Of a DNA stretch of 64,000 nucleotides, positions 3,459 through 12,046 are shown piece by piece. Numbering within the stretch: the first letter of the stretch is position 1; every line of letters starts with the position of its first letter. Both the position numbers and the translations under genes were made by a program. Under the pieces are notes generated by a model that searched no databases, had not been told where the DNA came from, and saw nothing but the letters and a program-made list of their open reading frames with translations. The DNA comes from Methylovulum sp. (GTDB lineage: Bacteria; Pseudomonadota; Gammaproteobacteria; Methylococcales; Methylomonadaceae): positions 62,001 to 126,000 of the forward strand of contig NZ_JAQTZU010000010.1 of the NCBI RefSeq assembly GCF_028687615.1. The letters are read 5' to 3'.

Positions 3459-5156
3459 TTACAAACGATACAAGGGTTCTAACGGGCTATCTTCTTTCCC
3501 CGCCAACTTAGCCCTCGCTTGGTTTTCAGTAAAGGTCTGGAACAAACGCTTGCCTTCCCATTCGTGGGCGTCTTTGCCATATAACGCTTGATTCAACAAT
3601 AAAATTTCATCACGCAGACGCGCTTCACAAAACGTCGCAACTGCCCCTAGGCTAGTGGCCTTAAATTGTAATTGCCCCCATGCCAACAAGGCTGATTTTG
3701 CCGCTGTGGCATCGTTCGCGGCACAGGCTTTTTTCAAGCGGTTCACCACGTCCTTCAAGCGAATTTCCCGCGCCAGGCTGGCTTCATCTGGCAACACTTT
3801 GTCTACAGCTTTCCTGCTTAAAAAATATCCCAGTGTTGCCAGCCAGACCAAACCCAAGCCTAAAGCCACCCAAGGCCAGTAATTGGCGGGGGAGGCTTGC
3901 GTTAAGACAACAGGCGCAGGTGCTTGGGTTTTTTCGGCTTGGCTGCTTGGGGCCGGCGTGGTGGTAACGGGTGGCGCAGGCATATCGGCACCGGCAGCCG
4001 CAGTCAGCACGGTTTCAGGGATATGTGCGGTTTCCATTTGTTGGCTTTGGGTGTTAAACCAAGGGATATTGATGGCTGGCAAGGTGATCTGGCCCGCTTG
4101 GGAAGGGATCAGCGCGATTTTTTCTTCCTTGAAAGCCGTCAGGCCATTGCTGGTTTTATTTTCTTTCAATACCGGTTGGTCAGGATAAGTTTTTACGCTG
4201 CCGTCGATTTTGCTGGCGTTCAATTCCGGCAATTGCCCGACGGTGACGCCTTTGGCTTGGATGCTCAAGGTGCGCGTCAAGGGTTCGCCGACTTTCATTT
4301 GCGTGATGTCGCCAGACCATTCCTGTTTTAACTCCAGTTGCTCGGCGGGCAACCAATGCTGCCCGCTTGCCGTAGCGGGAGCGGGTTTGACATCCAGTGT
4401 CACCGCTTGCGATTCCACCCGTTTGGCTTTCGCCATTTGCGAATTGAAAAAACTGTTATAAATCGAGCGGCTGATAGTCAGGACTTCGGCGGTCAACACT
4501 AGCGGCTTGATGGTCAATTTACCGCTTTTTTGTGGAAACACGGCATATTTACGCTCGGTGACCGAATAACTCACACCGTTGACCTGCGTGTTGTAGTTGC
4601 TGTCATCACCGAGTTTTTCAATCACGGCATCCGCCAATTCAGGCTCGGACAATTGCGCCCTGGCTATATCAACACGCGTGTAAACCCGCAAGGTGTAAAT
4701 GATTTGTGCCTGGATATAAGCGTCAGTTGGCGTGGCTTCAACTTTTAAGAACAACTCTTCGTTGCTAGTTGCGCCGCCTTGCTTGCTGTCTTGAAGCACT
4801 TGCACGGGTACAGGCGACGTGACATCATCACCAAAATGGATGGCCGGAATTTCCAGATTGCCCGCCGATTTTGCCATGACATTTAGCGTCCATTGGATGG
4901 TTTTGCTGGTTTGTCCATTCACCCAAGACGAACTGCTGGCCTGATTTTGATGCAGTATCGAAAAATCCTGTTCCAGCGGGCTAAAATCAGGGTCATCATC
5001 CGGGTCTTCTTTGGCGGTGAAAATGACCTGGAACGAGTCATTCAGATTGACCGGATTGCGGTCTACGGTGACTTGGATTTGGGCTGCTAAGGCGTAGGGG
5101 CTGATGGTTAGCAATAATAGCCAACTCAATAGCATAAAAGGTTTGATTAATGACAT
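3459..5156 (-). CDS. batD: BatD family protein
   Basis: A 565-aa envelope protein: signal peptide (residues 1-24, ending YALAA), a long beta-rich region opening IQVTVDRNPVNLNDSFQVIF, a TPAPSS/TQAPAP linker around 400-425, one transmembrane helix (YWPWVALGLGLVWLATLGYF) and a cytoplasmic helical tail. This is the BatD (Bacteroides aerotolerance) layout, a family linked to MoxR-AAA/VWA protein systems. The usual partners (moxR, batA, batB) are not adjacent; a restriction endonuclease gene ends 3 bp upstream instead. The exact biochemical role is unknown. Confidence 0.82.
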   Translation of the reverse strand: MSLIKPFMLLSWLLLLTISPYALAAQIQVTVDRNPVNLNDSFQVIFTAKEDPDDDPDFSPLEQDFSILHQNQASSSSWVNGQTSKTIQWTLNVMAKSAGNLEIPAIHFGDDVTSPVPVQVLQDSKQGGATSNEELFLKVEATPTDAYIQAQIIYTLRVYTRVDIARAQLSEPELADAVIEKLGDDSNYNTQVNGVSYSVTERKYAVFPQKSGKLTIKPLVLTAEVLTISRSIYNSFFNSQMAKAKRVESQAVTLDVKPAPATASGQHWLPAEQLELKQEWSGDITQMKVGEPLTRTLSIQAKGVTVGQLPELNASKIDGSVKTYPDQPVLKENKTSNGLTAFKEEKIALIPSQAGQITLPAINIPWFNTQSQQMETAHIPETVLTAAAGADMPAPPVTTTPAPSSQAEKTQAPAPVVLTQASPANYWPWVALGLGLVWLATLGYFLSRKAVDKVLPDEASLAREIRLKDVVNRLKKACAANDATAAKSALLAWGQLQFKATSLGAVATFCEARLRDEILLLNQALYGKDAHEWEGKRLFQTFTENQARAKLAGKEDSPLEPLYRL

Positions 5157-5159
5157 AGT

Positions 5160-6278
5160 TTATTCTTCTGCTTCCACATTAAATTCAACACGGCTTTGCA
5201 ACACAATTTCTTCTATAACGCTTGTGCCATTGCCCGACTCAAGCACTTGCTGGAATATTTCAACAAGTTTAGGAATATTGATTATCTCTTCTATGGATTC
5301 AATATATTTTTTTACAATCGCTTTGATTTGATATTTTGCTTCCGCTTGATGGCTGATTTTTTCTATTATTGCATCAGTCGATTCGTTGGTTTTGACAACA
5401 AATGTGACGGGATATCTTTGGACTTTGTCTACATCCAGAAAATATTTTCCTGCATCAACTGTTTCGGTCACTTGAAAAAATCTACCCAGCGGTTTCATGA
5501 CAAAATCTATACCGCCATCATTGGCATTCGTCCGGCCTGTTTTGTAGAGGGTTAAGGCATCTTCAACAAGTTCTTCAAGTGACCATCCCCAATAAATCCG
5601 TTGATCGGCATAATGCTGTTTTAGGATGGCAAAGCTGACAATTTCAAAAATTCGCGCATCCACATTGGGGCGCAATAAGCCCTGTATGAACTGGATCGCT
5701 TTCTCTGGCGATTTTTCCTGAACATCTATGATTTCTTGGCAATAAACCATAAATTCCGAAAATGCACTCTTCCGCGCTTGGATATACGCATCAATAATTT
5801 CATGGATTGCAGCGGCAAGATTAAATGTAACTTTGTCGAATTGGACAGAAATGAACTTCTCATTAAGCCAATAGCGGTTACTTTCCGCATCACGAATGAC
5901 GGGCAAATACTCACAAACCGGAAAATATTTTTTGAATTCTTCATTTAGGCGATGGTTTAGCGCGTGATTTTGCAGCTTGCTCCCAAATGGCAATTCACGT
6001 TGGCGGCGCAATAAATCAGTGAATTTCGCGCCTTCATAGTCCGCATAACCACCCTTGTTGGCAAATCCACCGTTTAGGTAGTCTTCTACCAAAACATAAA
6101 TCGCATAGTGATTGGCAAATCCCGCACGTGATTTTGAACCACGATTTGCCGCTTTGGTTTTGAGATTTAGATATTGGATCATCACGCTGGTGTTTAAAAT
6201 TGCTTTACCTTGGTTTTCAAAATGACGGTCAAGAATCGCAAGCAAGGTATCGGTAAAATGGTGTTCAGGAATTGACAC
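5160..6278 (-). CDS. Putative type II restriction endonuclease (partner of the adjacent methyltransferase)
   Basis: A 372-aa protein without a family I can name by sight. The assignment comes from its 14-bp overlap with the upstream adenine methyltransferase on the same strand, a classic R-M arrangement. A possible PD-(D/E)xK-like core is NDGGIDFV followed by RFFQVTE near residues 255-275, with a lysine-rich segment after it; this is inferred by eye. If the methyltransferase is a true YhdJ homologue, the expected target is ATGCAT. The gene ends 3 bp before batD. It could instead be an unrelated nuclease. Confidence 0.6.
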   Translation of the reverse strand: MSIPEHHFTDTLLAILDRHFENQGKAILNTSVMIQYLNLKTKAANRGSKSRAGFANHYAIYVLVEDYLNGGFANKGGYADYEGAKFTDLLRRQRELPFGSKLQNHALNHRLNEEFKKYFPVCEYLPVIRDAESNRYWLNEKFISVQFDKVTFNLAAAIHEIIDAYIQARKSAFSEFMVYCQEIIDVQEKSPEKAIQFIQGLLRPNVDARIFEIVSFAILKQHYADQRIYWGWSLEELVEDALTLYKTGRTNANDGGIDFVMKPLGRFFQVTETVDAGKYFLDVDKVQRYPVTFVVKTNESTDAIIEKISHQAEAKYQIKAIVKKYIESIEEIINIPKLVEIFQQVLESGNGTSVIEEIVLQSRVEFNVEAEE

Positions 6279-7143
6279 TAAAAATATCCCCTGTCATATC
6301 AATCCGCTTTATTCCTCGGCCATTTTGGATTTTGGTGTTTTTCTTGGGCTTAGCCAAATTCTCGCCTTGATAATCCAATAAGCCCAGGACACGCCGTAAA
6401 CCAATTTTTAAATAGTCTTCTTGTGATTCGATACTAATCGACTTCCGTCCCAAGGCTTTTGCCACGGCGGCGGTCGTAAATGTCCCGGAAAAAGGATCAA
6501 GTACGGTGTCGCCTACATTGCTGCTGGCGCGGATGATACGTTCAAGCAAGGCTTCTGGTTTTTGGGAAGGATGGTTTTCGTACTCATCCATCCGATATCT
6601 GACCCGCGAAAAATCCCAAACATTGCCTGGCACTTTTTGTGTGTTGTAGGGTTTTGGCACATCACCTCGATAATCAATCAATCCCCGTTTTGCACCCGTT
6701 TTTGCTTCAACGAGAATATCATCGGCATTAAAAGTATAGGCATTGGGATTCTTAACGCAATGCAAAATAGGCTCATACATAGAGCCGTAGTATTTTTTTG
6801 CCTGGACTCCTGAACTGTCATAAGACCAAATAATGCGGCTGAGGACAGTCAGCCTTTCCCTAACATAAAGGTCAAAATAGGGCATGGCTTGGGTGCTGGT
6901 CATCAAGTACATTGTTCCTGTAGGCTTAAGCACCCTGATGCATTCATCAAGCCATTGATAAGCCCAAGCAGCATAGTCAGCATCCGAAGGCCAACGGTCA
7001 TCAAATGCCGCGAATTTTTTGCCGATATTGTAAGGGGGATCAACAAAAATAAGGTCTACAGAGTTGTCTTCGATTTTTTTCCGTAGGACATCCAAGGCAT
7101 TGCCGTGATGGATACTGTGGCTTTGAATTTCGTATTTGTCCAT
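6265..7143 (-). CDS. Adenine-specific DNA methyltransferase, YhdJ-like
   Basis: A 292-aa beta-class N6-adenine methyltransferase. The catalytic motif DPPYNIGK lies near residue 36, and the SAM-binding motif (DPFSGTFTTAAVA) is C-terminal. Long stretches such as SRIIWSYDSSGVQAKKYYGS and KVPGNVWDFSRVRYRMDEYE are nearly those of E. coli YhdJ, which methylates ATGCAT. The track start at 7203 lies inside the upstream gene; ATG 7143 sits 4 nt after that gene's TGA and gives the family length. A GTG at 7155 is an alternative. YhdJ is usually an orphan, whereas here an endonuclease-like gene overlaps the 3' end. Confidence 0.87.
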   Translation of the reverse strand: MDKYEIQSHSIHHGNALDVLRKKIEDNSVDLIFVDPPYNIGKKFAAFDDRWPSDADYAAWAYQWLDECIRVLKPTGTMYLMTSTQAMPYFDLYVRERLTVLSRIIWSYDSSGVQAKKYYGSMYEPILHCVKNPNAYTFNADDILVEAKTGAKRGLIDYRGDVPKPYNTQKVPGNVWDFSRVRYRMDEYENHPSQKPEALLERIIRASSNVGDTVLDPFSGTFTTAAVAKALGRKSISIESQEDYLKIGLRRVLGLLDYQGENLAKPKKNTKIQNGRGIKRIDMTGDIFSVNS

Positions 7144-7147
7144 AGGA

Positions 7148-8605
7148 TCATTCACTATGCGATTGGAATGGATCAATAACCAACGGCAACATCTTCCCCG
7201 CATTCAAAATCCCATTCGGGTCAAACTGCTTTTGTATCGCCCGCATTAAATCCAAAGAATTGGCATCCAGTTCCCTATCGACGAAATCGCGTTTTTCTAA
7301 GCCCACACCATGTTCGCCAGACAATGTGCCGTTCAATTTCAGCACTAGCGAAAACACTTCGTCCAGACACTGGTGCGCCCTCGCGCTTTGTTCGGGATCG
7401 TCTGGGTCAAGCAAGAGATTGACGTGGATATTGCCGTTGCCGGCATGGCCAAAATTGATGATCGGCAATTGGTAGTGTTTGGACAATTCGTCCAGCCCTG
7501 CAATCAGCGTCGGGATTTCGGTGACGGGAACGACGACATCTTCATTGATTTTCTTCGGCGCGACTTTCCGCAAGGCGGGCGATAAGGCTTTGCGGGTTTG
7601 CCACAGGGCGGCGACTTCCTCCTTGGTTTGCGCGACGCGGATGTCCAGCAATCCGTCGTTCCTGGCACTGTCGGCGACTTTTTGTGCGGCGGAGTCCAAG
7701 CCATCGAGCTGCCCGTCCACTTCCATCATCAAAATCGCCCCTGCGTTTTCGGGCAAATCACAGGTGGAATATTGCCGGATCATGTTGATGGCGTTGCCGT
7801 CGATGAATTCCAAGGCGCACGGCACGACAGGCTGCGCCATAATCGCGGCGACGGCTTGGGCGGCGGCAAACACGTCTTTATACACGGCGCGTAGGGTTTT
7901 GGTGGCTTCCGGCAGCGGCGTGAGTTTAAGCGTGGCTTCGGTGATGACCGCCAAAGTGCCTTCCGAGCCGATAATCAGCCGCGTCAAATCCAGCCCGACC
8001 ACGCCTTTGCTGGTGAACACGCCGACTTTGATTTCCTTGCCCGCACCCGTGACGGCGCGTAGACCCAGCGTGTTTTCGCGTGGCGTACCGTATTTCACGG
8101 CGCGAGGCCCGGCGGAGTTGTAAGCGAGATTGCCGCCGATGCTGCAAAACGCCGCGCTGGTCGGGTCGGGTGGCCAGAAAAAGCCTTTTTTCTTCACAAA
8201 ATCTTGCACTTGCTGGTTGGTGATGCCGGGCTGGACACGGATGTAACGGTTATCGGGCGAGAATTCCAAGACTTGGTTCATGCGCTCCATTGACATGACC
8301 AAACCGCCTTTGAGCGGCACGGTCGCGCCCGTGGTTCCCGTACCGCGTCCACGGGCGGTCAGCGGCACTAAGTAGTCATTGCAGACGGCGACGGTGGCGG
8401 CGACTTGCCCGTGCGTGGTCGGGAACACCACCGCTTGCGGCGGCACATGGCGGCGGCTGTTGTCGTAGCCGTAAGTCCAGCAATCTTCCGGTTGGGTCAG
8501 CAAGTCGCTGGCGGCAAAAATCCGCGCCAAAGCCGCAACAAAACCAGCGGGCAAAGGCGGCAGGTCAATCGAGGTATTCAAAGACGGTGACGATTTGTTT
8601 GACAT
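7148..8605 (-). CDS. FAD-binding oxidase of the GlcD / D-lactate dehydrogenase family
   Basis: A 485-aa flavoprotein. The FAD-binding type 4 domain (about 50-230) shows RGRGTGTTGATVP and SIGGNLAYNSAGPRAVKYG; the FAD-oxidase C-terminal domain shows NFGHAGNGNIHVNLL and LSGEHGVGLEKR. It probably oxidises a D-2-hydroxyacid such as D-lactate or glycolate to the keto acid; the sequence alone does not fix the substrate. No glcE/glcF genes lie beside it, favouring a stand-alone D-lactate dehydrogenase. Its ATG lies inside the last 41 bp of dolP, so the two are probably co-transcribed. Confidence 0.85.
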   Translation of the reverse strand: MSNKSSPSLNTSIDLPPLPAGFVAALARIFAASDLLTQPEDCWTYGYDNSRRHVPPQAVVFPTTHGQVAATVAVCNDYLVPLTARGRGTGTTGATVPLKGGLVMSMERMNQVLEFSPDNRYIRVQPGITNQQVQDFVKKKGFFWPPDPTSAAFCSIGGNLAYNSAGPRAVKYGTPRENTLGLRAVTGAGKEIKVGVFTSKGVVGLDLTRLIIGSEGTLAVITEATLKLTPLPEATKTLRAVYKDVFAAAQAVAAIMAQPVVPCALEFIDGNAINMIRQYSTCDLPENAGAILMMEVDGQLDGLDSAAQKVADSARNDGLLDIRVAQTKEEVAALWQTRKALSPALRKVAPKKINEDVVVPVTEIPTLIAGLDELSKHYQLPIINFGHAGNGNIHVNLLLDPDDPEQSARAHQCLDEVFSLVLKLNGTLSGEHGVGLEKRDFVDRELDANSLDLMRAIQKQFDPNGILNAGKMLPLVIDPFQSHSE

Positions 8606-10340: not shown

Positions 10341-10650
10341 ATGCCTAAGGGGGGTTATGTGTTTTTTTGTTTATTTAAGTTGATTTGCTTGTCCTTATGT
10401 TTGGGGTTGGTTTATTCGCCGTTTGTTAGGGCATCGTTGGACCAAGAAATGCCTATGCAATTACAAATACAACAAAAGGATGCCGGATGGATTCCGATGA
10501 TGGAATTTCTAACAGAGCAGTTGTCGGGTTCATCCGTCCTCAAGGAAACGGATTATGTCGGTGGGCAATTCCCTCTAACCTTTGTACGTTATTTCCTGTC
10601 GCCAAAAGGCAACTACGATTGCAACCAACAAGGCTGGTTGCACAATTATT
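10341..10650 (+). pseudogene. 5' remnant of an unrecognised secreted protein
   Basis: The first about 100 codons of the 10341-11111 ORF start with a hydrophobic segment (VFFCLFKLICLSLCLGLVY) that looks like a signal peptide and then an unfamiliar sequence with no domain I recognise. From about 10655 the ORF reads into an IS3-type transposase fragment in mixed frames, so the original gene has lost its 3' end. The upstream 116 bp is AT-rich and could carry a promoter. Confidence 0.35.
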
Positions 10651-10654
10651 CAAG

Positions 10655-11111
10655 TTGCTTGTTCAGCCGCCTTGGACGTGCGGCATCACCATCAGCATGG
10701 ACAGATATTTGCTCCTGCAATATCTGCATTCCCCACATCCATGTGGGTCATGGGCGAGGCCGGGCGCTGGACAACATTTTTGTCGGGCGCTTGTGGCGGA
10801 CCGTGAAATACGAAGAAGTGTATTTAAAGCAGCACGGCAACCTGCCGGACTTGTTGATGGGATTGACGCAGTACTTCCAATTCTATAACCAGGAACGCCG
10901 GCATCAATCACTGGCTTACAAAACGCCCGATGAAGTCCATAAAACGGCTATCGGCGGCGGTGCAAAGATTGTGGATAAATTTAATGATACGGGTGAGGCA
11001 TCAGAACCCGTACAACAAAATCGGGACAGCGCCGTTCAGATGGAGTGCGAATTGAGTTCTATCTTAACACAGGTGTTTTTTGTCTGGACTTTGGGGGCCA
11101 CTATACAGTAA
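10655..11111 (+). pseudogene. IS3-family transposase, 3' fragment with palindromic insertion
   Basis: The C-terminal part of an IS3-type DDE integrase: ITISMD in one frame, then GRGRALDNIFVGRLWRTVKY, YNQERRHQSLAYKTPDEV in the next. The ISMD-GRGRALDN junction is split by 49 bp, shifting the frame. The first catalytic aspartate and everything upstream are missing. The last coding stretch runs into TTTGGGGGCCACTATACAG, plausibly the right end of the insertion sequence. Not functional. Confidence 0.8.
10703..10751. repeat. 49-bp double-palindrome insertion inside the IS3 remnant
   Basis: Two adjacent dyads, AGATATTTGC/GCAATATCT and CCCACAT/ATGTGGG, occupy exactly the bases that separate two halves of a conserved transposase motif. 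It shifts the transposase frame by 1. Looks like a miniature palindromic unit; no second copy seen in the window. Confidence 0.55.
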
Positions 11112-11185: not shown

Positions 11186-12046
11186 TTAAGCAACCAGAAT
11201 TTTGTTAAGTGAGTTTTCCCACTCGTTTTCAAACACCATGTGAAAAGATATTTTTTCTTTGGAATTTATCAATTCCAATTCGCCTTTGGGCTTAATATCA
11301 CCCATGAGCGTGGCATTGATAGTGCTGAATAATTTTTGTTTATAGTCGGTGTCTTTGTTGCCTTCCAAGTGTTCCCCTTTGGATTCCACAAAATACAGCC
11401 TTTCTATACCATCCGCCCCCGCCTCTAATTTAACCAGAAAATCAGAGTATATTTTTTCGCGCCTCCAGCCCTGTATTGAATATTCCGTACCCTTAACCGC
11501 TAATCTGTGCCACCATGCCACAACGTCTTTATTATTGATGGCGTGTGCCACGGCTTTTTCAAGCCCGTTATAATTAGAAAAATAGTGGGGTTCAAACAGG
11601 CTTTTTTCTAAGGTGACGGCAGTTTCGTTTAAATTGCGCTGCATTTCTATTTTTTCTGCCATTTGCCAGTTTAAATTAAAGAACGGCTCGGCAAGCAAAT
11701 GTAAAAAAACCGTACCTTCATCCAGTTTGCGCCTGAAAATTGCCTCTGATTGTTCAAGCATCCAGCGGAAACAATCCTTTTTTATTTCCTCAACGATAAA
11801 CACGGAATTAAGGGCTATTTTTGCCTCACTTTCGCCTTTTTCCCTTAACTCGGACAATACACCATCAATAATTCGGAAGGCTTGCCAAGCGTTCGGGACT
11901 TTATCCATTAACTGGCTAACCATTAAAGTAATGCTAATTTCGTTAGTTATTTTCTCTGATTTTTTCTGACTCTTAAAAAAATCAATCTGCCCAGACTTTC
12001 CCTTTTCTAAATCCACAACTCGTAAGGCGGATTCGCCGCGAGGCAA
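11186..12046 (-). pseudogene. C-terminal remnant of a type III restriction subunit (Res)
   Basis: About 286 codons resembling the end of a type III restriction Res protein: the endonuclease core YSDFLVKLEAGADG...YFVESKGEHL carries a D-ExK arrangement, preceded by GWRREK and AWWHRLAVKG. The helicase domain that should precede it is absent, and the reading frame starts within palindromic repeat DNA at about 12030. No mod methyltransferase gene is nearby. 5'-truncated and most likely dead, although a stand-alone nuclease domain cannot be excluded. Confidence 0.65.

What the first reader, a model, noticed from the sequence alone, without database searches (positions are those of the whole stretch)
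5160..7143. YhdJ-like methyltransferase paired with an unfamiliar endonuclease gene
YhdJ is best known as an orphan ATGCAT methylase. Here a very similar methylase overlaps a 372-aa gene whose only nuclease-like feature is GGIDFV...FQVTE. This could be a complete R-M system with an ATGCAT target and a poorly described nuclease, inserted in a housekeeping gene string.
Basis: partly seen in the sequence, partly recalled or inferred. Interest (0 to 1): 0.56.

Follow-up and report, generated by a model that had tools for sequence, protein, structure and literature searches.

The report
EcoT22I-type ATGCAT restriction-modification pair
Two overlapping bacterial genes encode an ordinary two-part DNA defence, a methylase that probably marks ATGCAT sites and a nuclease of the same family as the long-known enzyme EcoT22I; it is a new copy of a widespread known system.

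Summary
A 292-aa YhdJ-like adenine methylase gene (7143-6265, minus strand) overlaps by 14 bp a 372-aa GTG-start gene (6278-5160). The second gene is not a new nuclease. It matches the PADLOC type II restriction enzyme profile PDLC03455 over its full length (E=1.9e-183). Homologues lie next to a YhdJ-like methylase in all 90 loci examined, spanning many bacterial phyla and some archaea. One homologue is the only restriction-enzyme candidate on E. coli plasmid pEC22, published as coding for the EcoT22I (ATGCAT) methylase and nuclease. The family shares a near-invariant block, KTGRTNANDGGIDFVxxPxGRFFQVTE. AlphaFold models give a PD-(D/E)XK-like core with E212, D258 and Q269-V-T271-E272; fold matches to MspJI, Cap4 and Ecl18kI are suggestive, none significant. 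Of 61 genomes (its own and 60 relatives) only its own has the R gene, suggesting horizontal acquisition. ATGCAT is depleted in the genome, but so are many palindromes here, so that does not confirm the target. Verdict: a new member of the known EcoT22I-type R-M systems. Two details are under-described: no Pfam, NCBIfam or PDB sequence covers the nuclease, and its active site has Thr where Lys is usual.

The parts
6265..7143 (-). M gene: 292-aa YhdJ/M.EcoT22I-type adenine-N6 DNA methyltransferase
   Evidence: NF008572 484 bits (cut-off 292); PDLC03299 MTase_II 7e-135; 63% identical to K-12 YhdJ over 260 aa; DPPYNIG catalytic motif and DPFSGTF SAM motif intact
5160..6278 (-). R gene: 372-aa EcoT22I-type type II restriction endonuclease, GTG start, overlaps M by 14 bp
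   Evidence: PDLC03455 REase_II 1.9e-183; homologue of the only R candidate on pEC22; M gene adjacent in 90 of 90 homologous loci
5454..5534 (-). Invariant catalytic-core block of R, residues 249-275 (RTNANDGGIDFVMKPLGRFFQVTETVD), with D258, Q269, T271, E272
   Evidence: Alignments of 52 and 11 homologues; predicted strands 259-261 and 265-271, also seen in a domain-only model
6265..6278 (-). M-R overlap (14 bp), consistent with translational coupling
   Evidence: Sequence; M to R tandem on one strand in 86 of 90 loci, mostly overlapping

Best explanation
A complete two-gene type II restriction-modification system of the EcoT22I kind. The methylase adds N6-methyl to the second A of ATGCAT on both strands of host DNA. 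The R protein is a PD-(D/E)XK-like endonuclease that cleaves unmodified ATGCAT in incoming DNA. The methylase gene comes first and overlaps the nuclease gene, so the two are probably co-transcribed and translationally coupled. The system was acquired horizontally by this gammaproteobacterium. Shown here: gene layout, family membership, M-R linkage across phyla, conserved active-site block, patchy distribution. Inferred: ATGCAT specificity (from characterised relatives), cleavage, metal-dependent chemistry and defence function.
For: PADLOC type II REase full-length match, shared by all 11 diverse members including the pEC22 protein. pEC22 is published as 'a plasmid coding for MR.EcoT22I' (Elhai, Cai and Wolk 1994, cited in PMC5052281 and PMC5034289); its record has one methylase, yhdJ-like, and one adjacent 343-aa 'hypothetical protein' homologous to R. 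EcoT22I recognises ATGCAT (PMC3656875). YhdJ (M.EcoKII) methylates ATGC(m6A)T (PMC4444293). K-12 YhdJ is 77.5% identical to the pEC22 methylase and groups with the pEC22-type methylases at 100/99 support; the window M is 63% identical to YhdJ. M is next to R in 90 of 90 loci. The predicted fold has an E212-bearing helix, then strands bearing D258 and Q269/T271/E272, then a helix and a strand; top PDB matches include MspJI (prob 0.89), Cap4 and Ecl18kI. Neither gene's orthologue occurs in 60 relatives.
Against: No fold match reaches E<=0.001 and the catalytic loop is modelled with low confidence. R is only about 37% identical to the pEC22 protein, so its target could differ. R.EcoT22I is assigned to the pEC22 gene by elimination; the 1994 paper itself could not be read. 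ATGCAT depletion (14 observed, 86 expected in 464 kb) is shared by many palindromes, and some congeners lacking the system are as poor in ATGCAT, so it is no evidence for the target. The canonical catalytic Lys is Thr.
Confidence: 0.9

Rival explanations
1. A type II R-M system whose target differs from ATGCAT, R and M having shifted specificity together since divergence from EcoT22I.
For: R is only 36-37% identical to the pEC22 protein; genome ATGCAT depletion is not specific.
Against: M is 54-63% identical to YhdJ and M.EcoT22I with long invariant stretches through the protein; the conserved block of R is almost unchanged across the family.
Confidence: 0.07
2. The R gene is inactive and M acts as a de facto orphan methylase, as YhdJ does in E. 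coli K-12.
For: YhdJ is silent and has no partner nuclease in K-12 (PMC4444293; gene context); the Lys of the usual nuclease motif is Thr.
Against: R is full length with an intact reading frame and keeps the family-invariant residues; QVTE without Lys is the family norm, also in the pEC22 protein.
Confidence: 0.03

Closest known systems
EcoT22I R-M system (E. coli plasmid pEC22)
   Same: YhdJ-like methylase next to a homologous nuclease sharing KTGRTNANDGGIDFVxxPxGRFFQVTE; both proteins align over nearly full length
   Different: pEC22 genes are convergent with a small HTH (possible controller) gene upstream of R; here M and R are in tandem and overlap, and no HTH gene is adjacent. R identity about 37%.
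YhdJ / M.EcoKII orphan methylase of enterics
   Same: Methylase family, 63% identical over 260 aa; scores well above the YhdJ family cut-off
   Different: YhdJ has no partner nuclease and is silent in K-12; this one has an overlapping R gene
PADLOC PDLC03455 REase_II family, e.g. Beggiatoa, Thioploca, Planktothrix and Microcystis copies
   Same: Same M-R tandem arrangement; R up to 78-80% identical
   Different: No meaningful difference seen
NsiI and other ATGCAT enzymes (AvaIII, Mph1103I, Zsp2I)
   Same: Same recognition sequence is predicted (their specificity from general knowledge)

Membership tests
EcoT22I-type type II R-M system | R homologous over nearly full length to the pEC22 nuclease | tested here: met
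   tblastn E=7e-59, 37.6% over 90%; alignment A2; both match PDLC03455
EcoT22I-type type II R-M system | Adjacent YhdJ-like m6A methylase | tested here: met
   NF008572 484 bits; adjacency in all 90 loci
EcoT22I-type type II R-M system | Cleaves ATGCAT | not testable with these tools
   Needs an enzyme assay; only homology here
EcoT22I-type type II R-M system | The pEC22 R-candidate gene really is R.EcoT22I | tested here: inconclusive
   By elimination on the plasmid map and the paper's title; the paper is not held
YhdJ (M.EcoKII) methylase family | Match over the curated cut-off of NF008572 | tested here: met
   484 against 292 bits
YhdJ (M.EcoKII) methylase family | Orphan, no partner nuclease (as in K-12) | tested here: not met
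   An R gene overlaps
PD-(D/E)XK nuclease superfamily | alpha-beta-beta-beta-alpha-beta core with acidic residues on the central strands | tested here: inconclusive
   Topology and E212/D258 placement fit; fold hits to MspJI, Cap4, Ecl18kI but none with E<=0.001
PD-(D/E)XK nuclease superfamily | (D/E/Q)-x-K half of the motif | tested here: not met
   The family has Q269-V-T271-E272, with Thr in the Lys position in 90% or more of members

The most novel reading that the evidence does not exclude
EcoT22I-type nucleases use an unusual PD-(D/E)XK variant in which the catalytic Lys is Thr followed by an invariant Glu (D-x10-QVTE), with the Lys role taken by another invariant residue such as K278 or K285.
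Probability: 0.35. Interest if true: 0.3.

Novelty: new member of a known kind. Interest (0 to 1): 0.13.

Why it matters
It gives the 'unfamiliar' gene a name and shows that YhdJ-like methylases commonly form half of EcoT22I-type R-M systems across phyla. K-12 YhdJ groups with the EcoT22I methylase, so the enteric orphan may descend from such a system; my sampling, which selected R-linked loci, cannot prove that. The nuclease family lacks a Pfam, NCBIfam or PDB entry and several plasmid members are annotated 'hypothetical protein', so naming it would improve annotation.

Tried and rejected
ATGCAT depletion as a specificity test: depleted (observed/expected 0.16) but rank 12 of 64 palindromes, and similarly low in some congeners without the system; dropped as uninformative. 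Empty-site comparison: congeners have TonB-receptor-like, RibF-like or other genes after glcD and batD elsewhere, so no clean empty site. Fold search on the full-length and domain models: suggestive, not significant. PDB sequence searches: nothing. Phage genomes: no homologue; four IMG/VR contigs hold one. Reading the 1994 EcoT22I paper: not held. No Rfam RNA near the pair.

Full report
The two genes are present as described. On the minus strand the methylase gene runs from ATG 7143 to the stop at 6265, and the second gene from GTG 6278 to the stop at 5160, a 14-bp overlap. The pair fits tightly between a glcD-like FAD oxidase gene (stop at 7148) and a batD-like gene (start at 5156).

The methylase belongs to the YhdJ family: 484 bits against the NCBIfam equivalog (cut-off 292), and 63% identity to E. 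coli K-12 YhdJ over 260 residues. YhdJ, also called M.EcoKII, methylates the second A of ATGCAT and is a silent orphan in K-12 (PMC4444293).

The 372-aa protein has no Pfam, NCBIfam or PDB sequence match but matches the PADLOC type II restriction enzyme model PDLC03455 end to end, E=1.9e-183. At least 389 relatives were found in the species-representative genomes. In all 90 loci checked (80 genome contigs, 6 plasmids, 4 viral contigs) a YhdJ-like methylase is adjacent; in 86 it lies upstream on the same strand, mostly overlapping. That linkage is strong evidence of a functional M-R pair.

The key identification comes from E. coli plasmid pEC22. Elhai, Cai and Wolk (J Bacteriol 1994) describe it as a plasmid coding for the EcoT22I methylase and nuclease; I know this from the title as cited in PMC5052281 and PMC5034289, because the paper is not held. 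The pEC22 record has one methylase, YhdJ-like, and beside it one 343-aa 'hypothetical protein' homologous to our protein (37.6% identity over 90%). No other annotated gene on the plasmid is a restriction-enzyme candidate, so this gene is R.EcoT22I by elimination. EcoT22I recognises ATGCAT (PMC3656875).

Conservation marks the likely active site. Across 52 relatives and across an 11-member set that includes pEC22, the block KTGRTNANDGGIDFVxxPxGRFFQVTE is almost unchanged, and E212, D258, Q269, E272, K278 and K285 are invariant. Two AlphaFold2 models (mean pLDDT about 80) place E212 on a helix, D258 and Q269-V-T271 on or beside neighbouring strands, then a helix and a strand. That is the order of a PD-(D/E)XK core. 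Best solved matches include MspJI (probability 0.89), Cap4 and Ecl18kI, all with PD-(D/E)XK nuclease domains by general knowledge, but RNase H-fold proteins also appear and no match is significant. The usual Lys is Thr here, throughout nearly the whole family. The catalytic loop was modelled with low confidence, so the fold assignment is probable, not shown.

The system looks horizontally acquired. Of 61 genomes from this genus, family and order, only the window's own has the R gene or a methylase above the YhdJ cut-off; in a class-wide sample of 274, three have R and four have M. The nearest methylases are in Thiotrichaceae and a few other metagenome-derived genomes. GC is 40-44% in the pair against 51-57% in its neighbours. 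Gene order around it is not conserved in congeners, so an exact insertion site could not be shown.

I tested whether the host avoids ATGCAT. In 464 kb sampled it occurs 14 times against 86 expected, but many palindromes are equally avoided, and some congeners without the system have as few. This neither supports nor refutes the target.

Conclusion: a new copy of a known, widespread kind of R-M system, of low novelty.

Noticed in passing
window 11186-12046 (-): A 286-aa ORF matches only the C-terminal part of a type III restriction enzyme (PADLOC PDLC03653, positions 628-877 of 883, E=4.6e-52): apparently a remnant of a second, decayed R-M system.
   Followed up: partly
window 10341-11111 (+): ORF carrying an rve_3 integrase-core fragment, apparently a transposase remnant fused to other sequence, close to the type III remnant.
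   Followed up: no
L161:3654-4538 compared with L084:4947-5870: E. coli K-12 YhdJ is 77.5% identical to the pEC22 (EcoT22I) methylase and is the supported sister of the pEC22-type plasmid methylases (100/99): the enteric orphan YhdJ may be the leftover methylase of an EcoT22I-type system. Sampling favoured R-linked loci.
   Followed up: partly
window 6938-6943: An ATGCAT site lies inside the methylase gene itself; only 4 of 90 homologous methylase genes contain one, so it is probably incidental.
   Followed up: yes
own genome, 464 kb sample: Very strong avoidance of many 6-bp palindromes (for example TCCGGA, GAGCTC, CCGCGG, CATATG at about a tenth of expectation), stronger than one R-M system would explain.
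   Followed up: no
L084, L085, L086, L087: Plasmid-borne members have a small HTH gene (69-81 aa) directly upstream of R, with M convergent: a likely controller protein absent from the chromosomal tandem form.
   Followed up: no
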